NCBI GenBank assembly: GCA_008330645.1
Contig: VLTN01000021.1
Span: 186,001 to 250,000, forward strand
Length of the DNA: 64,000 nucleotides
Reading direction: 5' to 3'
Origin: Cafeteria roenbergensis
Taxonomy: Eukaryota; Sar; Bigyra; Bicosoecida; Cafeteriaceae
The translations under genes were made by a program, and so were the position numbers. The notes below the pieces were generated by a model that worked only from the letters and a program-made list of their open reading frames with translations, did no database searches and was not told the DNA's origin. Position 1 is the first letter of the stretch. Every line of letters begins with the position of its first letter. Shown here one piece after another: positions 16,983 through 57,528 of this stretch.

Positions 16983-19115
16983 TCACTCAAAGCTGGCGCC
17001 GACGGAAACGAGCTTGTCAGCGTCCTCCTGCTTCTTGAAGCGCAGCATGAACCTCGCCGGAGCGGTCACGCCCTTGGCATCCTGGTTGGTGATGAGCGCC
17101 GAAACGATGGGCTTGCCCCCAGCCCTGATGGTTGGCTTTTCAAGGAAGCGGCCGTTGATCACAGTGCGCGGCACCGGGTTGTTGTCCTCGTCCATGCCGA
17201 GCAGGATGCAGTGTGCGACGCGCATGCCACCGCTTGCGCTCTTCATCACGCACAGCCGGCCAGCGGCAAGGCTCACCCAGGGGTCCTTGGGCAAGGCGCC
17301 CGACTCGTCAGCCGGCTTCATCCGCAGGGGCTTGCACACGGCATCGAATTCAAGCGTCTCGTCGTCGAGAAGCTTGGCACGTGGTGCTGCGCCGGCGTCC
17401 ACCTTTGGGGGCGGCTTGTCCTCCTCGGCAGCCCCACCACCAGGGGCGGGTGCAGATCCGGCGTCGGCCGGTGGGGCCAGCGTCGACGAACCCCCGAAGA
17501 TGCCGGCGGCTCCGCTGCCACCAGTCGGGGCTGAGCTGGTGGCGGGGGCGCCAAAGGCCCCGCCTGAGGCCGAAAACGCCGCAAACGGGTCGCTGCTGGC
17601 CGGGGCGGGCGCCGCGGAGGACGCCGCGGGCTTGGCAGCAAACGCCGCAAACGGGTCGCTGCTGGCCGGGGCGGGCGCCGCGGAGGACGTCGCGGGCTTG
17701 GCAGCAAATGCCGCAAACGGGTCGCTGCTGGCCGGGGCGGGCGCCGCGGAGGACGTCGCGGGATTGACAGCAAACGCCGCAAATGGGTCGCTGCTGGCCG
17801 GGGCCGAGGCAGCTGGTGCAGGCGGGGAGCCAGCCAGCGCAGGGCTCTGCGCGCTGGGTTTGAAGGAGAAGAGGCCGTCAATGGCACTCGAAGCTGAGGG
17901 TTTGGCAGGGGACGAGGCCGCCGCAGGCACGGCTGTTGGAGCAGGCGCGGGCGAGGTGGCAGCAGGGGCCGCCGCAAAGGCTGGAGCAGGCGCGGGGGCG
18001 GGAGCCGGGTCGGGCGAGTTTGTGGCAGCCGATAGCTGTGCCGTGCCAGCTGCGTCGTGGCCTGCCGCGGGCACGGACGCGTGAGGGCCAGGCGTGGCCA
18101 CTTGGCGCCTCCCTGGGGCAGAGCCTGTCTTCTTCCGCCACGTGCCATGCGTGATGTCGGCAGCGTGGTTGACGTAGTCGATGCACATTGCTGACCAGTC
18201 GCCGGCCACGGCGTCTGCCGTCTTCCCGTGAGTTGCCACCCAGGCAGCAAACCGCTTGTTCAGGGAGGCGAAGAGCCGCCGGCGCTCTTGCTTTGTCAGC
18301 TGACGCGCGGCATCGTCGGCGAGCGCCGACTTGGTCGCGCTGGGCGGCGAAACCGCGTCGGATCCAAGGTCAGACACCTGAAGCTTGGTCGTCTGCTGCG
18401 GCACGGCAGACGCACTGCCTCCGTTGCTGCTCTTGAACGGGTCCGACGCGGGCGCCCCGCCGCTCTTGAACGGGTCCGACGCGGACGCCCCGCCGCTCTT
18501 GAACGGGTCCGACGCGGACGCCCCGCCGCTCTTGAACGGGTCCGACGCGGACGCCCCGCCGCTCTTGAACGGGTCCGACGCGGACGCCCCGCCGCTCTTG
18601 AACGGGTCCGACGCGGGCGCCCCGCCGCTCTTGAACGGGTCCGACGCGGACGCCCCGCCGCTCTTGAACGGGTCCGACGCGGGCGCCCCGCCGCTCTTGA
18701 ACGGGTCCGACGCGGGCGCCCCGCCGCTCTTGAACGGGTCCGACGCGGACGCCCCGCCGCTCTTGAACGGGTCCGATGTGGACTGAGCTGCTCCGAAGAG
18801 CGCCTCCTTTGCCGCGGCTACACCACTGGCTGGGGCAGGCGCGGGAGCAGCAAGTCCAAAGTCAAAAGTTGCCGGCCCGCCACCTCCTGCTCCGCCCAAG
18901 CTCACGCCCGAGAAGAGCGATGCAGGCGTCGTTGAAGGCGCTGCGCGTGCACCCGTCCGATCCGAGCGCTTCTTGAGCCTGATGCGCTTCCTGTTGGCCA
19001 GGACCTCGGCGGGCGCGCGAGAGTACTGGACTTCCTCCTCCTCGTCCGCGGCGCCAGACTCCAGCATCTCGCGAGTCAGCTGGCTCTCGGGCCCCCGCTT
19101 TGCGGCACGGCTCAT
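16983..19115 (-). CDS. NUP50: Nucleoporin Nup50/Nup2-like, with RanBP1-type Ran-binding domain
   Basis: A single exon of 710 residues. The N-terminus matches the Nup50 importin-alpha-binding motif: basic AKRGPESQLTREM, an acidic stretch, then EVLANRKRIRLKKR by residue 50. Residues about 110-231 are eleven copies of an 11-residue unit with DPFKS at its core. Residues about 440-515 hold four longer repeats with SSDPFAAFA. The C-terminal 125 residues are a RanBP1-like domain (DPWVSLAAGRLCVMKS, then RFMLRFKKQEDADKLVSV). Nup50 and Nup2 sit on the nuclear basket, bind importin-alpha and Ran, and speed cargo release during import. The usual FG repeats are largely replaced here by DPF motifs. It shares a divergent promoter with the RAD18-like gene. 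Confidence 0.88.
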   Translation of the reverse strand: MSRAAKRGPESQLTREMLESGAADEEEEVQYSRAPAEVLANRKRIRLKKRSDRTGARAAPSTTPASLFSGVSLGGAGGGGPATFDFGLAAPAPAPASGVAAAKEALFGAAQSTSDPFKSGGASASDPFKSGGAPASDPFKSGGAPASDPFKSGGASASDPFKSGGAPASDPFKSGGASASDPFKSGGASASDPFKSGGASASDPFKSGGASASDPFKSGGAPASDPFKSSNGGSASAVPQQTTKLQVSDLGSDAVSPPSATKSALADDAARQLTKQERRRLFASLNKRFAAWVATHGKTADAVAGDWSAMCIDYVNHAADITHGTWRKKTGSAPGRRQVATPGPHASVPAAGHDAAGTAQLSAATNSPDPAPAPAPAPAFAAAPAATSPAPAPTAVPAAASSPAKPSASSAIDGLFSFKPSAQSPALAGSPPAPAASAPASSDPFAAFAVNPATSSAAPAPASSDPFAAFAAKPATSSAAPAPASSDPFAAFAAKPAASSAAPAPASSDPFAAFSASGGAFGAPATSSAPTGGSGAAGIFGGSSTLAPPADAGSAPAPGGGAAEEDKPPPKVDAGAAPRAKLLDDETLEFDAVCKPLRMKPADESGALPKDPWVSLAAGRLCVMKSASGGMRVAHCILLGMDEDNNPVPRTVINGRFLEKPTIRAGGKPIVSALITNQDAKGVTAPARFMLRFKKQEDADKLVSVGASFE
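18424..18786 (-). repeat. 33-bp tandem repeat (11 copies) in NUP50
   Basis: Eleven consecutive in-frame units of 33 bases encode the DPFKSGGASAS / DPFKSGGAPAS alternation. Copies are almost identical at the DNA level, differing mainly at one G/A site that decides Ser against Pro. This is the signature of recent expansion or gene conversion. Confidence 0.92.
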
Positions 19116-27187: not shown

Positions 27188-29072
27188 TCAAAGCTTATCC
27201 AGCTTGGTCACAATGTAAACACGCAACGTCTGGTCAAGGCACGCAGCGCAGGCAAGGCCGATCATGTCGCGCGACCAGTCCAGCGAGACCATGGGCTGCG
27301 TGCTCAGCACGCGGCTGTTGAGCAGCTCGACGCTCCCCGCCACTCCGCGGTAGTGCCCCTCTTCGTCCTTGAACGTCCTCTTGCTCGGGTACGAACTGCG
27401 AAGGGAAGCGGGGCACGACGACGGCAGCGACCAGAATGAGAGTGAGCACGGGCTGGCCGGCAGGTGGGCGCCATGCGCTGCCTGAGGCAAGGAACGCGGG
27501 CGAGGGCGCCGCGGGCTCACTACCGGTACAGGTTGAGGCCACCGTTGCCGCCCGTGGTGGCGAAGAGGTCTCTGTTCTGCGGCAGGTGGCGCGCCCGCCA
27601 GATGGTGCTCTTGTGCGCGCGCTCCTCCTTGAACGCGAATCCCTCCGTCGGGTGCAGCGTGCGCGCATCGAACACGCGAAACCTGCTCTCCAGCGTTGTC
27701 GCGACGATTTTGTTCATCTCAATGTCCTTCCGGTCGAACTCCACGTTCACGACGCCGTTGCCGCAGTTGGTCTCCCATCGCAGCCTGCGAGGAGCTCGCG
27801 AGCGCGAGGCGAGGTGGCCGCGAAGGTCAGTCTCCGGCAGCGTCGCCGCAATCTTCCACCCGCGTGTGGCGGCCCGCCGTGTGAGCTCGAACCGGCCGCC
27901 ACCCTTGGCCCAGCAGGAGGGGGGTCCACTGTGTCCACGCCCACACCGTCGAGCCGCGGGCCTGCACCGCAGGACAGCTGGCTGACTCACGTGTTGGTCC
28001 TCAGGTCGAACAGCTTCACGTCGCCGTTGTCGTAGCCGGCCAGCACGCACCGCTCCGCGTCCGAGTAGGAGTTTCCAAATGCCACAGTCCAGCAATCGCG
28101 AGCGGTTTCGCCGTCTGCCGGCTCGAGCGACACCACCGGGTCAGGCACACGCGGGTCCCAAATGCGCACGCAGCCTGCGGCCGGGCTCAGGGCGAGAGGC
28201 GCGGCCGAGGAAGGAAATGATCATGGGAGGCGACGCTGCAGGCGATGCTGGAGGGCTGGGGGCCAGGGCGCCCGGACCAGGCAGCGTTGGACGAGGTGCC
28301 GCGACTCACCGTCTCTCGAGCAGGTGGCAATCTCGGGCGCCCCGCCGCCGATGCCGAGCCCGCCGCACCCGTCCACACAGTTGATGATCTGGGAGTGGGC
28401 CTTGGGCGCGGCGAAGACGGGCGCGTCTGTGCGGTTGAGGTCCCTGCGGTCGGAACAGGGCGCGCACTGGAGGGAGCGGACATCTCGGGGACAAGCGCGG
28501 CGGGCGCAAGAACGGGGGCTAAGCACACGGGCGTCGTGCGGGGCCAGTCCGACCGGGTGATGGCGGGCCGGCTCACCACACGCTCAGGCCGCCGTTGTAG
28601 TCCCCAGTCGCCAGGTGGCGGTCCTCCACCAGAGAGGCGCCAAACGTGGCGCACTTGAACGCCGCTGGCTTCTCGCACTGCAGCACGAGCAGGGGAGGGG
28701 GAATGGGACAATACCACAGGCTCGGTTCGCCCGACTGCGAGGCGGCCACGCGCTCGCGGCCAGCGGCATGCGCGAGGCAGGGCGGCAAGCGACCCAACGC
28801 CTGGTTCGAAAGCGGCTCACCTCGTGGACGAGCTTTGCCTTTCCCCCGTCCAGCTCGTACACCTGCAAGGCACCCGTGCCTCGGGGCTTCTCGCCAATCG
28901 CGACGAACCTCGCGGAGGAGGGCACCCAGCGGATGTCTGTGGGCGAATAGGTGATGGAAAGCTGGCAGTGCTCAATGATTTGCGGTGCCTCCGTCGTGAG
29001 CATGGTGCTCTTGGGCTCGGCGATGGCCGCATCGCTTGCAGGCCCCGGGGCCGTCCCCGCTGCCGCGGCCAT
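27188..29072 (-). CDS. WDR92: WDR92/Monad WD40 protein (dynein axonemal assembly factor 10)
   Basis: Six minus-strand exons (29072-28821, 28677-28577, 28443-28310, 28174-27991, 27784-27521, 27395-27188) join in phase to 380 residues. Alignment to WDR92 is almost continuous: PQIIEH near the start, [77 protein letters not shown] and the end IVTKLDKL. It forms a seven-blade propeller. WDR92 works with the R2TP/prefoldin-like chaperones to pre-assemble axonemal dynein arms, and is found in organisms with motile cilia. It is the most intron-rich gene in the window. The ATG at 29072 was chosen over an upstream in-frame one because the known N-terminus is short. Confidence 0.94.
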
Positions 29073-29554
29073 GATCTTCCCTGCGGACGCTGAGTGGGGA
29101 GTGCGCGGCGTGCAATCGCAATTTGTCGTTGGGGAGCAGCTCTGTCCCGAGTGCTGAGGCAAGGTCATTGAATTCGCCTCGCGCGAACAGCACCGCGCAG
29201 CAGCACAGAGTGCTCACTCATAAGAAAGCGCGCGGCTCAGGCAAAACCCAAACCAACACGGGTCGGACATGGAGCAGACGGAAACTTTGCGCAACGGGAC
29301 GTTCACGCACTCAGTTCGAGTTCCTTGCGCACCGGCTGCTCACGCAGCAGCAGCGGGTGCGGAGAAAAGGGAAAAGAAGGCCTGGGGGCTGTAGGTAATA
29401 CCTGTCCGACCAGTCAAGACTTCTGTCGGGAGTAGGGAAGGAGTTGGCGAAGGCAGGTCAACGTTCGCGGTGCCAAACTGTTGAAAGCGCGATCTCGGGC
29501 CTGCAGCAGACAGCGCGCCAGCCACGAGTGGCGCTTTGGTCACGCAGGGTGGGC
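29073..29554. other. Spacer between WDR92 start and the giant fusion gene end
   Basis: It holds the WDR92 promoter and the 3' UTR of the upstream minus-strand gene. AA-rich runs near 29221-29260 are the only departure from high GC. No RNA gene is seen. Confidence 0.4.
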
Positions 29555-32500
29555 TCAATCCTTGCTAGAGGCGTCGGCCTTGGCGGCTGCCGCGGCGGCG
29601 GCAGCGCTCACGGCTGCTGCCGCGTCCGCGCGCTTGGCCGCTCGCCTCGCGCGCCGCTCGGCAGATCGCATGCGCTGGTAGGTGAGCTTCAAAAGCAGGC
29701 GAAGGTCTTGGGCGTCCCTGGACCCGCTAGAATCGGCCAGGGCTCGCTCCACCTGAACGCAGAGCATGTCGGTTGCGCTGGGCTCGACTGCGGCAGCAGC
29801 GGCTCCGGCAACGCCACCCGAGGCCCGCAGCTCCCCGTCGTCGTGCGGGCCTGGCCCCGCAGGGCTGCTGGGTGACTGGGCGCCGGCGACGCGGCGAACT
29901 GAGCTGGAGGCGGTGAGGAGCAGGCGGGCCATCAGGTCCTCCTCGTCGTCGGAGCCCATCTCCAGGTCCCTCGCGTCTGAGGAGTCCATCAGGCCGCTCA
30001 GGGCACGCGAGGAGGGGCCGCCGCCGGCAGCGCTGCTGCCGTCGCTGTCGCTGTCGTCCTGGTCAGAGGCGTCGTCGTCGCCCGCGGCCACAGCTGCGGC
30101 AAGCAGCCTGCGCCGGCTCTTGAGCACCATCTCCCTCTGCTGCCGCTTCTGAGCGACGCACCTGTCCACGGTGGCGAGCCTGTCGGCGACCGCCGCCACG
30201 TTGTCGAGGGCCAAAACGCGCAGCTGCCCCGTGAGGAAGCCTGCGGGCACGCCGTTGCGAAGCAGCTGCACGCCGAAGTAGGCTCCCCCGCCGCGGGAGG
30301 CAAGCCGCTCGTACCGCCGGCGGTAGGCGGGGAGGAACCGCGCAAACGAGTCCGTGGCCATGAGCTTGAACACCTCCGCGCTGGCCTCGGCGAAGAGCTT
30401 CTCGAGGCGCTCCCACGTCCAGCGAGCGCGCTCCGCCTCCGGGTCGGGGGGCGCGGCGCCGGCGCCGGCAGCGGCGCCGCCGATGGCGCGCGACCCGGCG
30501 GTCACGGGCGGCCTCGCGTCGGGGAGGCCCGCCGCCCACGCGAGCGAGCGGATGCGCGAGGCGACGACGGAGGCGATTTTGGCTGGGAGGTTTACCATGG
30601 CGGGGGCGGAGGACGGGTCGATGTACTCGTCAAATATGGCCCGGGCGGTTTCCGCCACGGCGGCCAGCTGCTCCGGCGTTGGCCGGGCGTCGGCGTCGGC
30701 CGCGGCGGAGACGGAGGCAGACGCCACTCCCGCAGCTGCAGAGCTGCCGGCCGCAGCGGAAGCGGCGACGGCCGCGCCCGAGCCCGCCCCGCGCGCACCG
30801 GCAGCGGCGGCGCCCTCGGGTGCCGCCGATCCCGCCGGCGCGCCGGTGCGCGCGGACACAATCGGCGCGAGCACGCTCAGCCCAGAGAAGGAGTCTGCGC
30901 CCGGCGGGGAGCCCCTCGGGTCGGCGTCGTCCTCGTCCGCCTCGACGGCCAGGGCGGCCATGGAGGAGCGCCGAAGGTCCGTGACGGGGCAGGTGGCGAG
31001 GCTGGCGCGGCGGTGCTCCGCGTCGATGGCAAAGGACCTGGAGGCCGTGCGGCCGCGGCCCCCAGAGGCGGCGCTGGCGCTGGAGAGGAACGAGGAGGCG
31101 CGGCCGCGAGAGGGCGGCTTGGGCCCGCCGCCGGATGCGCCCAGCAGCTTGGCGGCCTTGGCGCTGATGCCCTGGGGCGGCGCTGGCAGGACGACGCCGC
31201 CCGATTCGTTGGCCCTCTGGCGCTGCGCCGCCCTTGCGCGGGTCGAGAGCAGGTCCTGGGCTGCCTGCTCCCGGAGCCGGGCCAGCCGCTCCTTGGCCAT
31301 GCTCAGCGTTCGCTGGGTGGCCATGGAAACCGACTGCCTCGGGGCGGGCCGGCTCGCGGGCTCGAGCGGTCGCACGCTGCCTCTGCGGCCAGACTGGCCG
31401 CTCGGGCGACGAGTCTTTGCTGTCGGGGACCCGCCGCCGTCGCTGGCCTGCGACCCCAGCAGGCGCGTGTGCGCGTTGATGCGAGCCAGGAAGTCCTGGA
31501 CCTCGAGCCAAAAGTCGATGTTCTCGCCCGAGCGCTCGCGACGCACGTGCGCGGCGAAGGTGCGAAGGAGCCCGGGGCGGTCCAGCACCTTTGCGAGGGA
31601 CAGGTCCTTCGGGGCCACGTCCTCGTCCGCACACGAGGCGCCGAAGACGACGGAGAGCGGCAGCTCCGCCTGGCCGACGAGGCGGCCGGCGCGGGTGCGC
31701 AGGGAGGCGATGACGTGCTGGGAGCGGAGGAACTCCGTGTCCACGTAGAGGGGCTGCATGGGGGGCAGGAGGGCCTCGGGCCAGGAGGCGGCGTCGGGCG
31801 AGGCCGGGTAGTCCGGGGACAGGCCCACCATGCCGGAGGTGACAACGTCCGGCAGGAGGGAGGAGGAGAAGGTGACGAACAGCTCGTCCGTGGGCGAGAG
31901 GGGAACGTGCTTGCCGTCCGGCGGGGGCGACGGGCGGCCCAGCGAGGCCATGTCGACGTCCAGCCCTGTCTCAATGGCCGCGGTCTGGTCCGCGTCCGCC
32001 ACGGCGTCGAGGAAGCCGAGGCAGCGCGGCTGCAGGATGAGGCGGCCGGGGAGCGAGGGGATGCCGACGTGCTCGAGGTGGAAGTAGGGCATGGACGTGG
32101 AGAGCTGGAAGCCCGCCGCGACCGGCCGGTGGTCGGAGGGCGTGAGGGAGAAGGTCGCCCCGTAGAAGAGCTGGAGCACGTTGCCCTGCTTGGAGGCCGC
32201 GCTCCGCCAGAGGACGCGGTCGGTCCAGCTGGCGTTCTGGTTCTTCTTGTTGGAGTACTCGGGCGGGTTGGTGCGGCGCAGGAGGCGGTACGTCGGCGCG
32301 AAGTCGATGGCGCCCTCGCTGAACCCGCCAAAGCCAATGCCGTCGGCCCTGGCCCGCGTGAGCTCGTCGTGGGCGAAGAGGCTGGCCAGCTCGCCGGCCT
32401 TGATCATCTGCTGGACCTTGGAGAACTCCTCCGACGTGCCCTGCTTGCCCATGTCCACGCGGAAGTTGAGGTCCCCTGCCCAGAACACGTGGTCGTACTC

Positions 32501-35500
32501 GTGCAGGAGCTGCGAGCGGAGAGAGCCCTGGGCCGAGAGGTGGATTCTGCTCCCGCGCACGATGTCGGCAAAGTCCCCGCAGCGGGCCAGGCTCCTGCCC
32601 ATGCGTGCGGCGAGGTGGCAGGACACGAACGCCAGCGACGTGCAGCCGCGGTAGACGAGGCCGATGGCCACGCCGCCCTTGTTGCCCATGACGCCGCCGA
32701 TGCCCGTGGCCGTCGTGCAGGCCTGCACCTCCGAGATGTGGTGCGCGACGGACTCGCGCGCGAAGATGAGGAGGTGGATGCCCCAGAGGCTCTCCTGCGC
32801 CACCAGCACGTGCGTGGAGGGGCGGAAGGGGAGCCCGCCGCGCTGCTGGAACACGGCAGCGGAGGCGCCGGCGGTGTTGGCGGGGCGCAGCACGGAGGCG
32901 ATGGCCCTGGCCCACTCCTCCTTGTGGTTGCACTCCTGCAGCGCGACGGCGTACAGGTCGTAGCGGTGCGGGGCCAGCCACTCGGCGACGCGCTCGAGGG
33001 CGTCCTTTGCGGGGCGGGACTCGCCGCAGTTGAAGGTCCCCGTCCACACGTTCAGGGTGGGGGGCGCCCACCCGCAGCGCTGCAGGCCGAGCACGCGGGC
33101 GGCGGACACGTCGAGGCCCTCGATGACGATGCGCAGCAGGCCGAGGAAGCGGTCCCTGAGGGCGGAGGAGGGGAAGATAGCGTCGAACGCGTCAGCCTGG
33201 GAGGCGGCGTGCGGAAGCACCCGGACACGAGTCGGGTCCGTGAAGGACGGCGCCAGCCTTGTCGCCGGCCCCACGGGGACGGGCTTGCCTCCGTCCACGG
33301 TGTCGAACGAGCGGGCGCGCACGAGGGTGCCCTGGTTGTGGTTGAGCGCCAGAACGCGAGACACCACGCCGGCGCGAGTGGGCATCTTGACGGAGAAGAG
33401 CGACACCCCGGAGTGGTCGTAGCGCTCCCCCGTGGCGCACACCTCGACGTCTGGCTCGATGAGGTGGGCCAGGGTGCAGAACGCGGCGCTGGACTCGGCG
33501 TCGTCGAAGCGAAGCCACACCTCCCGCTCGTCCGCGCCCTGGCGGACCCACACGCTCACCTGCCGCTGGGAGGGATCGTCAGAGTGGATCTCCATGCGCG
33601 TGATGTCGATGAGGGCGAAGGTGTCCGTCTCGGCGCCCATCCCGACGGAGCTGGAACGGGAGCGCTGGCTCCCGTCGGAGCTGTTTCCCGCCAGCACTGG
33701 CGAGCTGGGAAGCCGTCCGGCGCTGGGCCCAGTGGTCCGCACGGAGGTGGCGGTGGGCGACGAGGGGCTCAGCTCGCACAGGCGGAGCTCGCACCGCTCG
33801 AGGTTGAAAGTGGCCTGTCGGGGCAGCCACTGGCCGAGGCGGGACCGCTGGGCCACGTCGAACGGGTTGGACTCCACGGACCGCATGCCCGAGGCGAGGG
33901 CGCGGCGAGAGGCAGCGCGCCTGAGCTTGCGAGAGCCGGCGTCTGCGGCCGCCTCGCTGTCGCCGGGGGAGCTGGCCCTGCCGTCAAGCTCCGTCACCGG
34001 GTGGGCTGCCGGCACCAGCACGGCCCCGGCCACGATGCGCGCCGCGTGGGCCCCCGTTCCCTTGGTCGCCTGGTTCGTGGGGGTGGGGGGGGCGGCGGGC
34101 AAGCCCGTCTCGCCGGTGCCCTCGCTGCCCGCCGGCGCGGACGCCCCACCCTGCCAGCCTGAGTCGCCCTTGTCGAGGATTCGCAGCAGGCCCTGGAACA
34201 TGGAGTGCGTGACGAAGTCCGACCGCTGCAGCTCCAGCTGGGCCGAGACCGCCGACACGCAAAAGTCGAACGCGTTGGGCCGAAGGCCGGCCCCGCCGCA
34301 CCGCGACACCGTGGCAACCTCGTTTGCCACCCGAGCGGCGAGGGCGGGGGGGATGAGGCGGAGGACGGGGGAGTCGCCGGGAGCACCGCCGGCGAAACCC
34401 TCGCCGCCGTGGTGGCCTCCAAGGAAGGTGTCGGCGATGTACACAGCGTGGTTGACGAGCCACTCGGGCGGCGCGGCGATGGGCTGGTCGGGGGCCGGCG
34501 ACAGGGCCACGGCACGCCTTGCGAAGGCGTCACACCTGGCCACAAAGTCTACAACCTGCGGGCTCACGTCCGGCGTGAACCTGAGGAAGCCAGCGCGGGC
34601 GGCGGGCACCCGGGCCAGGTGCGCCAGAGACGCTGACTCGCGCAGGATGGACAGCTCCAGGGCGGCCAGAAGCGCTCCGTCGTCGCCCACGGCCGACACG
34701 AGGTCGCGGCGGGTGAACTTGACAACCTGCGCGCCCGTCGTGGAGCCGGTGCTGACGTCCAAGCGGCGGGTGGCGGGCATGTACTGGCAGAGGGCGTCCA
34801 CGCCCACGACGGCGCCGGCGCCAACGCGGAGGCTGCGATCTCTCCCGGCGGCGTCGTCGGTGACGCTGACCTCCAGGGTGCCCTGCGTCACCACGAAGAC
34901 GGCGCTGTCGGAGGTTCCGCGCTCCACGATGGCGGTGCGGGGGGGAACGGACACCGGGCGGGCGAGGCCGAAGAGCCGCCGGAGCTGCCGGTCGTCGAGC
35001 GCCGCGAGGCAGCCCACTCGCAGAAGGCGCGCTTGCTGCGCCGAGCGTCGGATCACGTGCCGCTGGATGCTGGTTCGGAGCTCGGGCGCCTGCTCCAGGG
35101 TGTGCAGGAACGCGGTGCGCGTCTGGCAGAGCAAAAGGCAGTCCTCGGCGCCTGTGGTCACGGTGGCCGACGCAGGAGCCGCATCCGCGTCGCGGAGGAG
35201 GGACATTTCGCCGAAGAAGCCCCCGGCCCCCACGTCGGCAATTCGCTCACCGCGGATGGTGACCGTGACGGATCCGTGCAGCAGCACGTAAAAGGCATCG
35301 CCCAGAGTCCCCTCGAGGATGAGGCGCTGGTGGGGGGGCTTTCGGAGCAGCACGGCGCGCTCGATCACGGCGGCCAGGGCGTGGCGAGAGGCCCCCCGCA
35401 AGAAGGGGATCTGGTGCAGGTACACGGCCAACAGCATGGGGTCGTCGGACACCAGCTCCCGCGCGCGCGTGAGCAGCCAGTCGGACCCGTGCGGCATCGC

Positions 35501-36958
35501 GGCGCTGACCCTGAGGGCGTCGGAGCACAGCAGCACGACGGGGGCCTCGGCCTCGCCGGAGTCGCCGCCGGGGCTGGAGCTGCCGGCCACTGACCGGGCC
35601 CCGCCGTCTGTGTCGGTTTCGTTGTCGTCGTCGTCGGCGGCGGCGGGCATGGCCACCACAGTGAACTCGTAGCGAAATGCGGGGTTGAGCATCGCCGCGG
35701 AGGCCACCACCTCGCCCGGACCGGCGTCCGCAACCACGACCTCGCAGGGGCCAGGCTCCCAGGGCGGGAGCCCGGGGGCGGGGCCCGCGGCAGGCCCGGC
35801 CGGGGGGGGCGTGGACGCCCCGGAGTCCGGCTGAGACTGCCCGCTCCTCGGCAGCGAGCCCATGAGGCGCAGGCGGCCGCGCACGACCATCAGGGCGCCA
35901 AGCCCCGCCGTGGCGAGGGCGCCTCGGACGCAGACGACGTCCCCTGGCTGGAAGGCCACGGTGCGGAAGGCCCCTGCCGCCCGGGCCACGTCGCTGGGAC
36001 CGCACCTGCGCAGCAGCGGGAAGGACGCCCCCAGCGACGCGGCCGAGAGGAGCGGCTTGCTCTGCCGGCGCAGCGCCTTGAACTGGTCCGGCTCCAGCAG
36101 GTCCTTGGCCTCCACGGCGGGGGAGGACGTGCGGCCCGCAGCGTCGGTGCCGCCGGCTGCAAGCAGCTGCTCGGCGGCGTCGAGCTCCTCGCCGTCAGCG
36201 GCGCCCGCGGTGAGCGGGTCGGCGGCATCGACGTCAGTTGCGGGTGTCAGCGGGGGCATGTGGGGCGAGGGGGGCGGCTGCGCGGGCCTCGCGGCGCCGG
36301 GGCCGGCGCCCGTGCTTGCTTCGTCGCCAGCCGAGTCGCTCTCGCCGCAGTCCGTGGCAACTTGCAGGGAGCCGCCGGGCTGGTCACCGGACCCCATGCG
36401 GCCCAGGCTGGCTGCAAACGATACGCTTTGGCCAGAGGCACGCGCTGAGCGCACTGCTGTCGGCCCCGAGCCGGCAACGTCCAGGCTTGCAGCAGGCGAG
36501 TGCGCGTCGCCCGCGCCTCCGAACGAGTCCGCATCAGGCTCCGGCGAGGCCACGGGCGGCTCCTCTGCATCTGCGCATCCCGACTGGTCGTCGTCGTTGG
36601 CCACGGACCCGGGGCGGGAGTGCTCGGCGGGGTTCACGTCGGCCGGCGGATCCCAGTCGCTGGTGCCCGTGTCGCTGTTGAACCAAAAGGTGGCGCCGCT
36701 GTCCTCGTCCCTGCACAGCTGCCACGCGGGATTGCTGAACTGGGCCTCGCCAGTCAGCTCGTTGCGCCACCACACGGGGAACTCGTCAGCGTCCCCGGCC
36801 TCGGGCTCGTCGAGCTGCACCCAGCCCCACGCTCGTGGCTGCTCCCACGCCGACTCGTCCGTGTGGGTGTTGTAGAAGAAGGACTCCTCTCCGTCCTCGT
36901 TCTCCGACACCTGCTGCCACACCCCGTACTGGGCGAGCACGTGGAACCCCTGGGCCAT
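29555..36958 (-). CDS. Giant signalling fusion: WW, cNMP-binding-like, inositol 5-phosphatase, RGS
   Basis: A single uninterrupted exon of 2,467 residues. Three WW-like modules lie at about 12-104 (ESFFYNTHTDESAWEQP, then ATFWFNSDTGTSDWDPP). Three cyclic-nucleotide-binding-like domains follow at about 320-470, 505-630 and 635-765. The middle one has FGEMSLL near 582, but the phosphate-contacting Arg of the usual PRxA motif reads Ala (APASATV), so ligand binding is doubtful. PH-like segments lie near 1,100-1,280. Residues about 1,300-1,617 are an IPPc catalytic domain with GNKGGVAIG, WAGDLNFRVD near 1,494, SWTDRVLW near 1,576 and SDHRPV near 1,607; these suggest an active 5-phosphatase. A beta-rich segment follows, then an RGS domain starting at LDRPGLLRTFAAHV near 1,787 and resuming at 2,103-2,218 after a low-complexity insert. 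It probably removes the 5-phosphate of inositol lipids under G-protein or second-messenger control. Confidence 0.85.
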   Translation of the reverse strand: MAQGFHVLAQYGVWQQVSENEDGEESFFYNTHTDESAWEQPRAWGWVQLDEPEAGDADEFPVWWRNELTGEAQFSNPAWQLCRDEDSGATFWFNSDTGTSDWDPPADVNPAEHSRPGSVANDDDQSGCADAEEPPVASPEPDADSFGGAGDAHSPAASLDVAGSGPTAVRSARASGQSVSFAASLGRMGSGDQPGGSLQVATDCGESDSAGDEASTGAGPGAARPAQPPPSPHMPPLTPATDVDAADPLTAGAADGEELDAAEQLLAAGGTDAAGRTSSPAVEAKDLLEPDQFKALRRQSKPLLSAASLGASFPLLRRCGPSDVARAAGAFRTVAFQPGDVVCVRGALATAGLGALMVVRGRLRLMGSLPRSGQSQPDSGASTPPPAGPAAGPAPGLPPWEPGPCEVVVADAGPGEVVASAAMLNPAFRYEFTVVAMPAAADDDDNETDTDGGARSVAGSSSPGGDSGEAEAPVVLLCSDALRVSAAMPHGSDWLLTRARELVSDDPMLLAVYLHQIPFLRGASRHALAAVIERAVLLRKPPHQRLILEGTLGDAFYVLLHGSVTVTIRGERIADVGAGGFFGEMSLLRDADAAPASATVTTGAEDCLLLCQTRTAFLHTLEQAPELRTSIQRHVIRRSAQQARLLRVGCLAALDDRQLRRLFGLARPVSVPPRTAIVERGTSDSAVFVVTQGTLEVSVTDDAAGRDRSLRVGAGAVVGVDALCQYMPATRRLDVSTGSTTGAQVVKFTRRDLVSAVGDDGALLAALELSILRESASLAHLARVPAARAGFLRFTPDVSPQVVDFVARCDAFARRAVALSPAPDQPIAAPPEWLVNHAVYIADTFLGGHHGGEGFAGGAPGDSPVLRLIPPALAARVANEVATVSRCGGAGLRPNAFDFCVSAVSAQLELQRSDFVTHSMFQGLLRILDKGDSGWQGGASAPAGSEGTGETGLPAAPPTPTNQATKGTGAHAARIVAGAVLVPAAHPVTELDGRASSPGDSEAAADAGSRKLRRAASRRALASGMRSVESNPFDVAQRSRLGQWLPRQATFNLERCELRLCELSPSSPTATSVRTTGPSAGRLPSSPVLAGNSSDGSQRSRSSSVGMGAETDTFALIDITRMEIHSDDPSQRQVSVWVRQGADEREVWLRFDDAESSAAFCTLAHLIEPDVEVCATGERYDHSGVSLFSVKMPTRAGVVSRVLALNHNQGTLVRARSFDTVDGGKPVPVGPATRLAPSFTDPTRVRVLPHAASQADAFDAIFPSSALRDRFLGLLRIVIEGLDVSAARVLGLQRCGWAPPTLNVWTGTFNCGESRPAKDALERVAEWLAPHRYDLYAVALQECNHKEEWARAIASVLRPANTAGASAAVFQQRGGLPFRPSTHVLVAQESLWGIHLLIFARESVAHHISEVQACTTATGIGGVMGNKGGVAIGLVYRGCTSLAFVSCHLAARMGRSLARCGDFADIVRGSRIHLSAQGSLRSQLLHEYDHVFWAGDLNFRVDMGKQGTSEEFSKVQQMIKAGELASLFAHDELTRARADGIGFGGFSEGAIDFAPTYRLLRRTNPPEYSNKKNQNASWTDRVLWRSAASKQGNVLQLFYGATFSLTPSDHRPVAAGFQLSTSMPYFHLEHVGIPSLPGRLILQPRCLGFLDAVADADQTAAIETGLDVDMASLGRPSPPPDGKHVPLSPTDELFVTFSSSLLPDVVTSGMVGLSPDYPASPDAASWPEALLPPMQPLYVDTEFLRSQHVIASLRTRAGRLVGQAELPLSVVFGASCADEDVAPKDLSLAKVLDRPGLLRTFAAHVRRERSGENIDFWLEVQDFLARINAHTRLLGSQASDGGGSPTAKTRRPSGQSGRRGSVRPLEPASRPAPRQSVSMATQRTLSMAKERLARLREQAAQDLLSTRARAAQRQRANESGGVVLPAPPQGISAKAAKLLGASGGGPKPPSRGRASSFLSSASAASGGRGRTASRSFAIDAEHRRASLATCPVTDLRRSSMAALAVEADEDDADPRGSPPGADSFSGLSVLAPIVSARTGAPAGSAAPEGAAAAGARGAGSGAAVAASAAAGSSAAAGVASASVSAAADADARPTPEQLAAVAETARAIFDEYIDPSSAPAMVNLPAKIASVVASRIRSLAWAAGLPDARPPVTAGSRAIGGAAAGAGAAPPDPEAERARWTWERLEKLFAEASAEVFKLMATDSFARFLPAYRRRYERLASRGGGAYFGVQLLRNGVPAGFLTGQLRVLALDNVAAVADRLATVDRCVAQKRQQREMVLKSRRRLLAAAVAAGDDDASDQDDSDSDGSSAAGGGPSSRALSGLMDSSDARDLEMGSDDEEDLMARLLLTASSSVRRVAGAQSPSSPAGPGPHDDGELRASGGVAGAAAAAVEPSATDMLCVQVERALADSSGSRDAQDLRLLLKLTYQRMRSAERRARRAAKRADAAAAVSAAAAAAAAKADASSKD

Positions 36959-37265
36959 GATCGGGGGCGGCGGACAGCCGGTGCCGGCCAGGCGAGACTT
37001 GCCGCGAGCTGATCGGGTTTCCGGCCTGCCTCGGCGCTGTATCGGGAAGCCGTCACCGCCTCCCCCGAGTGAAGCTGTGCCGGGGAAGCAAAGGCGTCCC
37101 CCGTGCGGGCAGCGGTCCGGTGCGGGCGCCGGGGCAGCCGCGGCAGGCCTCGGCCGGGGCGATCCCCGTGCGCCGCGCTTGCGGTCTCTGTCAGCTCTGC
37201 CGGCCGGCGCGCGCGGCGGAATGCCTCTGTTGCGGGGCACCTCGGCGGCGCGGCCCGCAACCGCC
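36959..37265. promoter_or_regulatory. Divergent promoter region, giant fusion / RBM22
   Basis: Two genes start outward. No motif can be assigned. The role is inferred from orientation. Confidence 0.4.
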
Positions 37266-39186
37266 ATGGCGAGCGGCCGACTCGGCGGGCGCATCAAGCG
37301 CGATGACACCATCGCCGGGGTCGACGACTCGGAGATGCCCAGGCTCTGCGAGACGTGCTTGGGCCCGACGGCATACTTGCGAATGCAGCGCCTGCCGCTC
37401 ACGAGCGAATGCCACGTCTGCGCGCGCGCAATGACGTCGTTCCGGTTCCAGCCAGGCCCGCAAGCACGCTACAAGAAGACGGTGCTGTGCAACGTGTGCA
37501 GCGACCACAAGAACGCCTGCCAGTGCTGCATCAACGACTTGACGTACAGTGAGCTTTTCCGCCGCCCGTCCGCGTGACGGCCCAGCGGCCGACGCCCCCC
37601 TTTCCCGCGCACCGCGTAGCCATCGCGTGTGCTGTGCCGCGCCGTGTCTGCGCCGGGCCGCGCGCGGGGCCCTCTGGCCTCGCCCTCTGTCGGCTGGCAG
37701 CGACGAAGGCTGGGGCCGCTGCGCCGTTGGAGCGCTTGCGCTGGCCACACTGGCGGTGCTCCCGGCCCGCGGTTCCCTCGGGCGGGATGGTTGCCGCCTG
37801 GCCTGCTCGTCTGGCTGCCGCCCGGCCTGCTTGCGATTGCCCCGTGCCGCCTGCTGCGGCTGCCGGTTCCTCGCCCGACCGTTCCTTCGACTCCATGAGC
37901 TGCCCCCGCCCCTGCCTGTCCGCCCCGCAGACATTCCGCTCAAGGTGCGGGATCGCATTCTTGCCAAGCACCACGCCGTGGCCGAGACCGCGGCGCCCAA
38001 GTCGGAGCTCAGCATGCAGGTCTATGCCCAGGAGACGGCCCGCAAGCACGCTGCGGGCGAGGCCTCTGGAATCGCCAGCTTCATCCCCCCCGCTGCGCAC
38101 GCCGAGCTGCAGCGCCTGGCGCGCCGCGCGCCCAACTACTCCCGCAACAAGGCGAAGCTCTGCTTCCACTACATGAAGGGCACGTGCACCCGCGGGGCGG
38201 CCTGCCCCTACCGGCACGAGTTCCCGGATGACTGGGAGTCGAACAAGGAGTTCTACACCAAGGACATCTCCCAGAGCATCAAGGACCGCTTCTTCGGGAC
38301 CAACGACCAGGTCGCAAACAAGTGGATCGCCAAGATGGACGAGGACGAGGAGCGGGCCAAGAGCGCCGCCTCCAGCGCCGGGTCCACGCTCGTGGTCCTG
38401 GGGATGGTTCCGGAGGTGGGGACGGAGGACCTCAAGGACGCGCTGGGCGGGTACGGCGACATCTCGCGGGCGGAGGCGGTTCCGTCCAAGGGCGTCGCCT
38501 TCGTCGAGTTCGCGTCCAAGGACGACGCGACGGAGGCGATGCAGTCCACAAAGGGCCGCCTTGCCATCGACGGTCACCGCCTCCGCCTCAAGTGGTCCAC
38601 CGCAGGGAGGGGCAAGTCCGACGGCGGGCTGCTGGGTGACGTGCCGGGCCTGGCAGCGGGCGGCGCTGCTGCTGCAGGCGGCGCTGCTGCTGCTGGAGCT
38701 GCTGCTGGCGCTGCTACTGGCGGCGTGCCGGCGGTGGTGCCGATGGCGGGGCAGCGGGCCGGAGACCCGGCCGCCGGCCATCGGGCGGGCGGTCCCGGCC
38801 CCCAGCAGGGCTGGGCTGGCGCGCCAACCGGCCACCCCCACTGGGGTGCGCCGCGCCCTGGGTTCCCTCCGCTGGCTGGCTATGCTGCGGGGTGGGCAGC
38901 GGCCGGCGCAGGCGCGTACGGCCATCACCACGGCCACCCCCACCACCACCACCACGGCGGCGGCGGGCAGCCGCGCCTGATGTCCACGGCGGCGCTCCCG
39001 GCACCGGCAGGCATTGCTGGCGGACCAGGCCAGTGGCAGCAGCAGCGCCCCGGGGCTGGCCCTGCGGGCAGAGGCCGCGGGCGCGCTGCTCCCACGGTGC
39101 CGTACGCGTCCATGCACCCGCAGAGGTTTGGCTCCGCGCCCAAGCCGCCCGTCGCGGACGCGGCTGCTGCGAGGCCCGGACCGTGA
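37266..39186 (+). CDS. RBM22: Spliceosomal RNA-binding protein RBM22 (Cwc2/Ecm2 family)
   Basis: Exons 37266-37548 and 37931-39186 give 512 residues; the junction restores DLTYNIPLKVRD. Paired cysteines at about 30-92 (LCETCLGP, ECHVCARAM, LCNVCSDH, ACQCC) form the Ecm2-like zinc module. A CCCH finger is at about 170-191 (CFHYMKGTCTRGAACPYRHE) and an RRM at about 247-318 (STLVVLGMVPEVG, then GVAFVEFASKDDA). The C-terminus is Ala-, Gly- and His-rich, with a His run near 430. RBM22/Cwc2 contacts U6 snRNA and the pre-mRNA and helps shape the catalytic core of the spliceosome. All modules are in the family's order. Confidence 0.95.
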
Positions 39187-39712: not shown

Positions 39713-41131
39713 ATGGCTGCCGCCGCCGCTGCGTCCTCCCTCGGCCATGTCACCAGCGCGTCCATCGCCCGTGCTGCCGGCCTTGACTCCGACCCTGCCA
39801 CGCTGCAGCGCTTCATTCTGACGGAGCAGTGCAAGCACCCGGCAGCCAGCGGTGACTTCAGCCTGCTGATGAGCTCCATTGCGCTTGCCTGCAAGGCCAC
39901 CGCGGTCGCGGTCAAGAAGGCGGGCATCGCTGGCCTGTATGGCATCGAGGGCGTCGTCAACGTCCAGGGCGAGGACCAGAAGAAGCTGGACGTGATCGCG
40001 AACGACAACTTTGTCAACGCGCTGCTCGTGAGCTGACAGCTCGCGCACGCGCGCGTTTCGTAGCGATGCGCTTGCTGGCATTGTCGCGTGGCGTGGCGCG
40101 CCCGGCGCGAGCTCGGGACGGGCGCCAGCCTGGACTCGTGAGCTGTCGCCAGTGCAACCGCCGCCGTCGCCCCCTCGCCGTCCTGCTCGCAGTCGTCCAC
40201 CAAGGTGGCCATGCTCATCAGCGAGGAGCTTCCCGAGCCCATCGTGGTCCCAGCGGACCGCGCCGGCAAGTACATTGTGGCGTTCGACCCGCTTGACGGC
40301 TCCTCCAACATCGAGTGCAACGTGTCCATCGGCTCCATCTTCGCCATCTACGAGCGCACCACGGACCTCAAGACCGCGTGCGACGTCGAGAAGGACGGCC
40401 TCCAGGCCGGCACCAAGCTGGTGGCCGCCGGGTACTGCATGTACGGCGCCGCCACCGTCATGGTGCTGTGCATGGGCGCCAGCGTCATCGCCTCCACGCT
40501 CGACCCCTCGCTCGGAGAGTTCATCATCACCAACAAGGACCTCCGCCTCCCCACCCCCGGCAAGCGCATCTACTCCATCAACGAGGGCAACCTCAAGTCC
40601 ATGCCCGCGGGCGTCCAGGCCTTCGTGGCCGAGTGCAAGGACGGCGCCAAGCCCTACAGCCTGCGCTACGTCGGATCCATGGTTGCCGACGTCCACCGCA
40701 CCCTCTGCTACGGCGGGATCTTCCTGTACCCCGCCACCGCCAGCTCCAAGTCGGGCAAGCTCCGCCTCCTCTACGAAGCCAACCCCATGGCGTTCCTCAT
40801 GGAGCACGCTGGAGGATCCGCAAGCTCCGGTGAGCGGGCCAGCACCGCAGCGCACGGCGACCGCGCGCACACACTGCCACACCCCGGCGATGCGCGCCCC
40901 TGCCGCATGCGCGCACCCCCGGTGTGTCATTTCCGCTCGCAAGTCGCTCACAGGCAAGCCCCGTTCCCGTCGCTCTCGCCCCCCCCCCCCCTCCCTCTCC
41001 CCTATGCAGGCTCGTGCCGCATCCTCGAGGTCGAGCCCAAGGGCATCCACTGCCGCTGCCCCGTCATCATGGGGTCCCCCCGCGACGTGGACAACGTTCT
41101 CGCCAAGATGGCGGCCGCGGGCGAGTGCTGA
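39713..41131 (+). CDS. FBP1: Fructose-1,6-bisphosphatase
   Basis: Exons 39713-40027, 40193-40829 and 41010-41131 give 357 residues. The substrate/metal loop FDPLDGSSNIECNVSIGSIF is intact, as are SEELPEP (metal Glu), YVGSMVADVHRTL and KLRLLYEANPMAFLMEHAGG. The enzyme hydrolyses fructose-1,6-bisphosphate to fructose-6-phosphate, the committed step of gluconeogenesis or, in plastids, of the Calvin cycle. The N-terminal extension is short and Ala/Ser-rich; I see no clear plastid signal, so the cytosolic gluconeogenic form is more likely. The cysteine-rich redox loop of chloroplast FBPase is not evident. The last intron is 180 nt and open in frame. Confidence 0.96.
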
Positions 41132-56605: not shown

Positions 56606-57528
56606 TCGCGGGCACGGGTCTGCGTTTTGCCATCGTAACGGCGCGCGCTTGTGTGACGACGCATCCGACACCTCTGCCCTGAGGCCGAAAGTGCACCGAG
56701 CGCCTGCAAGACTGTCGCCCCAGCCAGGGTCCCTTCCGCGCGGCGTGCAACGCACACATTGTGGCCCTGCATCTTGTCTGTCCCGTGCGCGCTCGGACTG
56801 CACTCGTGACCACGGGAGAGCTGCGGTTTGCGCTCGACGTTGCATACCTGCTCGTCCTGATGACCGCCAGAGCGGGCGGCCACAAGTCTGCCCCGCAACG
56901 CACTTGACTGCCCGCGGCTTGGAGCGGCTGCCTGGCGCAGGTCTACGTGTTTGAGTGCCACCCACGGGCACGGCCTTTCTCGGGCCAAGGCCTTGGCTGC
57001 TGCTGCGCGCGTGGCGAGGCCTGGAGCAGACTTTGACGTCCCATCGCTGCTCGGCACGACCTGGCGCCCCCCCGCTGTCCCACAGCCTCCGCCTGCGGCT
57101 CCGCGCGGCGCTCGTTGCGTCACCCTCCAGCTTCTCGCACCCCCCACACCGGCCCTGGCGTTGCCTAGGCTCCCCGGGGACTGCTGGGGATGCAACGCCA
57201 CACCCGAACACCTTTGCCTCGAGCGGCGTCGTCCCAGGCAGCGCAGCGAATGGTCGCCAGCAGGAGCACCGGGCAGGACGGTGAGCTCGCCAAGGCCCTT
57301 GCACCTGCGGGCGAGTGCAGTTGCGCGCAAGTCCCTGGGCCTCGGGCCAGCTCGGAGAATGGCCGGCCACACGTCCGCCTCGCCTTACCTCGCTCAAGTC
57401 TGACCGCAAGTCGCAACATGATTGCGATGCACTTGCGCGCCGCCGGCCCTGCGCCCCCCCCCACTTGCCAGCGAGCCGTGCGAGCATAGTTGGGGCGCAC
57501 CTGTGGACACGCGTCCTTGTGCTGCTGT
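56606..57528. other. Spacer after Rab21
   Basis: The 923 bases hold the Rab21 3' UTR and the promoter, and possibly non-coding 5' exons, of the large downstream gene. Long minus-strand frames here have Arg/Ser/Ala shadow composition and no domains. Confidence 0.35.

What the first reader, a model, noticed from the sequence alone, without database searches (positions are those of the whole stretch)
29555..36958. WW + cNMP-binding-like + inositol 5-phosphatase + RGS in one polypeptide
The uninterrupted frame encodes domains from three signalling systems. The 5-phosphatase catalytic motifs (GDLNFR, SWTDR, SDHRP) are intact. RGS domains normally end G-alpha signalling, and cNMP-binding folds normally sense cAMP or cGMP. 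I know of no standard protein family with this combination, so this could be a lineage-specific switch coupling G-protein state to phosphoinositide turnover.
Basis: partly seen in the sequence, partly recalled or inferred. Interest (0 to 1): 0.8.

Follow-up and report, generated by a model that had tools for sequence, protein, structure and literature searches.

The report
Protist lipid-phosphatase fused to G-protein regulator
One long protist gene appears to join an intact-looking inositol 5-phosphatase to a G-protein regulator domain, cyclic-nucleotide-type sensor folds and WW protein-binding modules, a combination that could tie G-protein signalling directly to membrane-lipid turnover but has not been tested.

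Summary
Window 29555-36958 (-) is one open frame of 2,467 codons, with WW, cNMP-binding, inositol 5-phosphatase and RGS domains above Pfam cut-offs. Corrections: (1) At least two cNMP-type folds sit in tandem; the best keeps the FGE motif but lost the phosphate-binding arginine, so cAMP/cGMP sensing cannot be assumed. (2) The phosphatase is followed by a weak, below-cut-off trace of a SHIP-type C2. (3) The RGS domain is split by a ~259-residue insert yet keeps the G-alpha contact residues (list recalled). Codon bias supports one coding frame through the cNMP-phosphatase-RGS part; the WW-cNMP linker and the last ~107 residues are weak, and two possible in-frame introns outside the recognised domains are not excluded. 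Unrelated genes (WDR92, RBM22) flank it. Most likely it is a G-alpha effector and GAP in one chain, working like RGS-RhoGEFs but with a 5-phosphatase as output; that is inferred. No relative was found in the two collections scanned (viral, prokaryotic); no eukaryotic proteomes are on hand, so uniqueness is untested. Fusing G-protein parts to phosphoinositide enzymes is a known stramenopile theme. Rated a new variant of a known kind.

The parts
29555..36958 (-). Whole open frame, 2,467 aa plus stop
   Evidence: codon bias; splice-site scan
36833..36922 (-). WW domain 1 (residues 13-42)
   Evidence: WW has two stretches when the N-terminal 120 residues are scanned alone (only the best, 77-105, is located there); W..FFYN..T..S.WEQP by inspection
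36644..36730 (-). WW domain 2 (residues 77-105)
   Evidence: Pfam WW, E=4.1e-8 whole protein
36359..36598 (-). WW-to-cNMP linker, residues 121-200, without clear coding bias: weakest join of the frame
   Evidence: no GTGAG donor and no pyrimidine-rich acceptor here, one weak donor at codon 169
35504..36031 (-). Possible degenerate first cNMP-type fold (residues 310-485) with two low-complexity inserts
   Evidence: Pfam E=0.13, 12.7 bits against 27.5, partial; suggestion only
35039..35416 (-). cNMP-type fold, best one (residues 515-640); FGE kept, phosphate-binding Arg replaced by Ala
34664..35026 (-). Second cNMP-type fold (residues 645-765), degenerate phosphate cassette
   Evidence: E=2e-5, below cut-off; PDB sequence hits only E=0.071 and weaker; low-confidence model matches cNMP-type folds with TM-scores of 0.25-0.29
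34154..34663 (-). Region of residues 766-935, helical in a low-confidence model, RGS-like by eye but not supported
   Evidence: no Pfam or PDB hit for residues 770-930; 24 of 1,000 shuffles score as high
33089..33871 (-). Region before the phosphatase (residues 1030-1290), PH-like by eye, unsupported
   Evidence: no PH family hit; only OB_DEPS-1 E=0.013 below cut-off; one PDB chance hit E=1; model unusable
32093..33052 (-). Inositol 5-phosphatase catalytic domain (residues 1303-1622)
31634..32092 (-). Possible SHIP-type C2 domain (residues 1623-1775), weak
   Evidence: Pfam C2_SHIP1-2_2nd E=0.0047 alone, E=0.15 in the whole protein, both below cut-off; SHIP2 E=0.46; a 1.1-bit second stretch in the SHIP1 alignment
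31454..31603 (-). RGS part a (residues 1786-1835), with GENIDFW
30677..31453 (-). 259-residue Ala/Ser/Gly/Arg-rich insert inside RGS (my boundaries)
   Evidence: coding-like codon bias in most windows, but not at 2041-2080
30524..30676 (-). RGS part b (residues 2095-2145), with VNL
30284..30424 (-). RGS part c (residues 2179-2225), with LMATDSFARFL
29558..29878 (-). C-terminal 107 residues (2361-2467), no clear coding bias

Best explanation
A single multidomain signalling enzyme: a 5-phosphatase, probably SHIP-like with a C2, carrying WW domains and tandem cNMP-type folds on its N-terminal side and an RGS domain on its C-terminal side. Proposed mechanism: GTP-bound G-alpha at the membrane is captured by the RGS domain, which brings the phosphatase onto its lipid substrate, where it removes the 5-phosphate from phosphoinositides or inositol phosphates. 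The same RGS contact speeds GTP hydrolysis and so ends the recruitment, making a self-timed pulse. WW domains dock proline-rich partners. The cNMP-type folds act as a regulatory or scaffolding module, more likely for an unusual ligand or none than for cAMP/cGMP. Shown: domain content and order, conserved motifs, continuous frame. Inferred: catalysis, G-alpha binding, recruitment, ligand state of the cNMP folds, and that the whole frame is one transcript.
For: Domain hits above cut-off. Catalytic-motif alignments with SHIP1, INPP5B and synaptojanin. The three RGS pieces occur in the correct order, all three aligned to RGS6 and the outer two to RGS4, with E-N, N and L-M..D-S..R-F-L kept. The C2 trace is co-linear with SHIP1/2. 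Frame 0 was best of the three sense frames in 39 of 40 held-out windows; the FBPase exons scored show the same bias and three neighbour introns do not. No donor/acceptor pair of 50-600 bases removes the RGS insert or the WW-cNMP linker in frame. Precedents: RGS-RhoGEFs act as positive effectors of activated G-alpha (PMC3499586, passages; PMC9283941, passages); the C2 of SHIP2 raises kcat on PI(3,4,5)P3-diC8 about 10-fold (PMC5550278, passages).
Against: No transcript, protein or activity data. The RGS domain carries inserts of about 259 and 33 residues, and its PDB matches are weak (best E=0.0042). C2 is below its Pfam cut-off. In the 5-phosphatase substrate loop an Arg kept in INPP5B and synaptojanin is Gln here. 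Frame 0 beat all six frames in only 32 of 40 held-out windows, and 5 of 40 scored zero or below. Seven donor/acceptor pairs of 50-600 bases exist, two of them in frame. No G-alpha from this organism was sought or seen. Structure models were poor (mean pLDDT 41.9 and 32.4).
Confidence: 0.45

Rival explanations
1. Simple co-scaffold: the RGS domain is an ordinary GAP and the phosphatase an ordinary housekeeping enzyme, joined to share location but without one controlling the other.
For: Motifs of both look intact; long low-complexity stretches give no hint of rigid coupling.
Against: The phosphatase-(C2)-RGS order puts the RGS next to the presumed lipid-facing module; RGS-RhoGEFs show that an RGS domain can act as an effector module. 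This is analogy only.
Confidence: 0.27
2. cAMP/cGMP-gated phosphatase: the tandem cNMP folds bind cyclic nucleotide and release or inhibit the phosphatase, as in PKG.
For: Best PDB matches of the main cNMP fold are cGMP-dependent protein kinases with several such folds (E=2e-21); FGE is conserved. A mammalian RI-alpha mutant of the arginine kept cAMP activation with EC50 changed only 5-fold (PMC6440977, passages).
Against: The phosphate-binding Arg is Ala in the best fold (alignments, cassette), and the next fold has Val in place of the FGE glutamate. Kinetoplastid PKAR, with neutral residues in place of the Arg, is cAMP-independent, though the same paper says that sequence alone did not predict this.
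Confidence: 0.18
3. Artefact of GC-rich sequence: two or more genes, or exons joined through stop-free introns.
For: In this genome an intron can be stop-free and in frame: FBPase intron 2, 180 bases. Residues 121-200, 2041-2080 and 2361-2440 lack coding bias. Two in-frame pairs of a weak donor with a good acceptor exist, at codons 1173-1268 and 2266-2352.
Against: Most held-out windows from the cNMP folds to RGS keep coding bias, whereas the three neighbour introns are flat. Both in-frame pairs lie outside the Pfam-recognised domains and would leave these joined. The one GTGAG pair (codons 1134-1268, 404 bases) would shift the frame. RGS parts a, b and c must be joined to make one domain.
Confidence: 0.08

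Closest known systems
SHIP1/SHIP2 (INPP5D/INPPL1) phosphatase-C2 core
   Same: Best solved relative of the catalytic domain (SHIP1 E=6.4e-34), followed by a weak co-linear C2 trace
   Different: No SH2 among the hits; WW, cNMP and RGS parts instead; C2 below Pfam cut-off; INPP5B and synaptojanin match almost as well
RGS-RhoGEFs (EhRGS-RhoGEF, NfRGS-RhoGEF) as G-alpha effectors
   Same: RGS domain in the same chain as a downstream signalling enzyme (PMC3499586, PMC9283941, passages read)
   Different: Output enzyme is a lipid/inositol 5-phosphatase rather than a RhoGEF; RGS split by a long insert
GPCR-INPP bigrams of oomycetes and Nannochloropsis
   Same: Fusion of a G-protein signalling part with an inositol polyphosphate phosphatase in stramenopiles (PMC6033456 and PMC5784254, passages read)
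   Different: Those carry a 7TM receptor; here no receptor family was hit and the G-protein part is an RGS domain; that this organism is a stramenopile is a guess
PKG/PKA regulatory cNMP-binding tandems; kinetoplastid PKAR
   Same: Tandem cNMP folds, FGE cassette; loss of the phosphate Arg resembles kinetoplastid PKAR (PMC6440977, passages read)
   Different: No kinase among the hits; the next cassette is more degenerate; the kinetoplastid Ala-to-Glu change is not seen (Ser at that place in the best fold)

Membership tests
Inositol polyphosphate 5-phosphatase | Profile match over the catalytic domain | tested here: met
   PF22669 E=1.1e-54, profile 2-287 of 288
Inositol polyphosphate 5-phosphatase | Conserved motifs GDLN, SWxDRVLW, SDHxP, NKG, HL (list recalled) | tested here: met
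   alignments, positions; one substrate-loop Arg of INPP5B/synaptojanin is Gln here
Inositol polyphosphate 5-phosphatase | Removes the 5-phosphate | not testable with these tools
   needs enzyme assay
SHIP subfamily | C2 directly after the phosphatase | tested here: inconclusive
   E=0.0047, 17.5 bits against cut-off 27.5
SHIP subfamily | N-terminal SH2 domain | tested here: not met
   no SH2 among hits up to E=1
RGS domain | Profile match above cut-off | tested here: met
   42.2 bits whole protein, 49.5 bits segment; cut-off 23.9
RGS domain | G-alpha contact residues (E-N, N, L, D-S, R; list recalled) | tested here: met
   alignments to RGS6 and RGS4; profile from recalled sequences; positions
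RGS domain | Accelerates G-alpha GTPase | not testable with these tools
   needs GTPase assay
cNMP-binding domain | Profile match | tested here: met
   E=1.6e-18; second fold below cut-off alone
cNMP-binding domain that binds cAMP/cGMP | Glu and Arg of the phosphate cassette | tested here: not met
   Glu kept, Arg replaced by Ala in the best fold; Glu replaced in the next fold
WW domain | Profile match with two Trp and Pro | tested here: met
GPCR-INPP bigram | N-terminal 7TM receptor | tested here: not met
   no 7TM family among Pfam hits up to E=1; no separate transmembrane predictor was run

The most novel reading that the evidence does not exclude
A one-chain signal integrator in which tandem orphan cNMP folds sensing a non-canonical ligand and an RGS domain reading G-alpha-GTP jointly gate a SHIP-like 5-phosphatase: a new class of G-alpha effector whose output is phosphoinositide removal.
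Probability: 0.15. Interest if true: 0.75.

Novelty: new variant of a known kind. Interest (0 to 1): 0.45.

Why it matters
If real and active, it would be a direct molecular link from a G-alpha subunit to phosphoinositide removal, complementing the better-known link to phosphoinositide breakdown by phospholipase C (recalled). It would add an RGS-phosphatase to the known RGS-enzyme effectors and give the question of orphan cNMP folds a testable protein.

Tried and rejected
A second RGS domain at residues 766-935, suggested by eye, was rejected: no Pfam or PDB hit for residues 770-930, and in a homemade profile 24 of 1,000 shuffles scored as high.

A PH domain at 1030-1290, suggested by eye, stays unsupported: no PH family in Pfam (only OB_DEPS-1 at E=0.013, below cut-off) and one PDB hit at E=1 to an unrelated protein.

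AlphaFold without an alignment gave poor models. For the first, the five best matches at E<=0.001 (of 730 at E<=10) are cNMP-type proteins, with query TM-scores of 0.25-0.29, so this is weak support for fold 645-765. The second model was not searched.

Relatives: the whole protein was scanned in viral contigs, and the phosphatase region alone in viral contigs and in prokaryotic genome contigs: 11, 6 and 15 stretches matched a pattern, and 0 were confirmed as relatives. Six viral scans and one genome scan were still allowed and were not used. The phage, plasmid and E. coli collections were not searched. No collection of eukaryotic genomes or proteomes is on hand.

Stop-free introns as the source of the inserts: considered because FBPase intron 2 is of that kind. 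Searches list 4 GTGAG donors, 9 weaker donors and 5 pyrimidine-rich acceptors in the frame; 3 of 3 neighbour acceptors pass the same acceptor test. Of 7 pairs 50-600 bases apart, 2 are in frame (codons 1173-1268 and 2266-2352, both with weak donors). They cannot be excluded but would leave the recognised domains joined. No pair explains the RGS insert.

Searches returned 0 papers; in the lists I recognised, from titles and abstract starts, no paper describing it. A zero for so common a pair of phrases as makes me distrust the sensitivity of these phrase searches. Most subscription papers are not held, and one that I asked for on the evolution of G-protein signalling was not. PMC9694693 (oomycete inositol signalling, passages) did not mention the combination in the passages seen.

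Full report
What is there. The minus-strand frame 29555-36958 is open for 2,467 codons from an ATG at 36958. The longer GTG-start version (to 37402) overlaps the start of a divergent gene. That gene encodes an STL11/RBM22-type splicing factor: the STL11_N profile hits the + frame 36879-37574 (E=5.8e-18); an RRM hit above cut-off and an RBM22 zinc-finger hit below cut-off lie further on; and its likely ATG is at 37266, read. Downstream on the same strand lies a WDR92-like gene (PDB 3i2n, E=2.5e-12). So the gene is bounded on both sides by unrelated, conserved eukaryotic genes.

Domains. Pfam reports, for the whole protein, a 5-phosphatase catalytic domain (E=1.1e-54, 1308-1615), cNMP-binding (E=1.6e-18, two stretches), RGS (E=1.2e-10, two stretches) and WW (E=4.1e-8), all above curated cut-offs. 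Scanning pieces alone adds a second WW stretch, a second cNMP fold at E=2e-5 (below cut-off), a fragment of a possible first cNMP fold at E=0.13, and a SHIP-type C2 at E=0.0047 (below cut-off; E=0.15 in the whole protein). The proposed order is WW-WW-(cNMP?)-cNMP-cNMP-unknown-phosphatase-(C2?)-RGS.

Phosphatase. The nearest solved relatives are SHIP1 (E=6.4e-34), type II 5-phosphatase INPP5B (2.1e-32) and synaptojanin-1 (1.8e-30), so the subfamily is not decided by sequence score. The C2 trace after it, aligned in order to SHIP1 and SHIP2, is what makes it SHIP-like, and that trace is weak. Motifs GDLNFR, SWTDRVLW and SDHRP are intact. One Arg of the substrate loop that INPP5B and synaptojanin keep is Gln here. 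In SHIP2 the C2 raises kcat about 10-fold on PI(3,4,5)P3-diC8 (PMC5550278, passages), which is why a C2 here would matter.

RGS. The domain is in three pieces (1786-1835, 2095-2145, 2179-2225; my boundaries), split by inserts of 259 and about 33 residues. All three align in order to RGS6, and the outer two to RGS4, and all three to a small profile typed from recalled sequences. Residues that in RGS4 contact G-alpha (recalled) are kept: EN in GENIDFW, N in VNL, and L, D-S and R in LMATDSFARFL. This predicts G-alpha binding and GAP activity; neither was tested. The PDB matches themselves are weak (best E=0.0042).

cNMP folds. The best fold matches cGMP-dependent protein kinases (E=2e-21; apicomplexan origin recalled). 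It keeps FGE, but the arginine that neutralises the cyclic phosphate is Ala in the displayed PKG alignments that contain it and in the cassette FGEMSLL...PASATV. In kinetoplastid PKAR, neutral residues at this place go with cAMP independence, yet the mammalian Arg mutant kept activation with EC50 changed only 5-fold, and the authors state that sequence alone had not predicted the altered ligand (PMC6440977, passages). The ligand, if any, is therefore open. The next fold has Val in place of the FGE Glu. A low-confidence model of residues 640-935 drew cNMP-type structures as its five matches at E<=0.001, of 730 at E<=10, with TM-scores of 0.25-0.29 on the query.

One gene or several? Three introns that I read in two neighbouring genes start GTGAGC and end in a pyrimidine-rich stretch plus CAG; one of the three is 180 bases, in frame and stop-free. 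An open frame alone is therefore not proof. Codon bias trained on domain cores was tested on 40 windows that share no residue with the training set: frame 0 was best of three sense frames in 39, best of six frames in 32, and above zero in 35. The two FBPase exons scored show the same bias, and the three neighbour introns do not. The frame holds 4 GTGAG donors, 9 weaker donors and 5 pyrimidine-rich acceptors, and all 3 neighbour acceptors pass the acceptor test. Seven donor/acceptor pairs are 50-600 bases apart: the only one with a GTGAG donor (codons 1134-1268, 404 bases) would shift the frame, and two with weak donors are in frame (codons 1173-1268, 285 bases; 2266-2352, 258 bases). If real, these two would shorten the unrecognised stretches before the phosphatase and after RGS without separating the recognised domains. 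Absent bias at 121-200 and 2361-2440 (windows) leaves the WW join and the C-terminus less secure.

Source. No genome is held for the window; no tRNA or Rfam hit. GC of about 71% with introns fits a bicosoecid such as Cafeteria, whose genome is about 70% GC with 1.67-1.89 introns per gene (PMC6972860, passages), but this is a guess.

How it most likely works. RGS domains can serve as effector modules: RGS-RhoGEFs bind activated G-alpha and pass the signal on (PMC3499586; PMC9283941; passages). By analogy, G-alpha-GTP would recruit this enzyme to the membrane and its RGS would then end the signal. In stramenopiles, G-protein receptors fused to inositol polyphosphate phosphatases are known (PMC5784254, PMC6033456; passages), so coupling these systems by fusion has precedent. 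The RGS-phosphatase-cNMP combination was not found in the 8 searches of the open-access library that bore on it, four of which returned nothing. That is weak evidence of novelty.

Verdict. Interest 0.45: a surprising but not unprecedented kind of domain fusion, with specific tests.

Noticed in passing
40830-41009 (+): FBPase-like gene has a 180-base intron, as I read it, that is in frame and free of stops, so open frames in this genome can run through introns.
   Followed up: yes
18429-18783 and 17574-17804: Tandem arrays of a 33-base unit (10.8 copies, 97% match) and a 66-base unit (3.5 copies, 96% match), units being multiples of three, inside a frame with a NUP50 profile hit.
   Followed up: no
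57490-63003 (+): Open frame of 1,837 codons, stop to stop, with no Pfam hit at E<=0.01.
   Followed up: no
28584-29168 (-): N-terminal part of a WDR92-like gene just downstream of the focal gene.
   Followed up: partly
4424-6373 (+): Zinc carboxypeptidase (Peptidase_M14, E=3.6e-21) gene with coding-like GC3.
   Followed up: no
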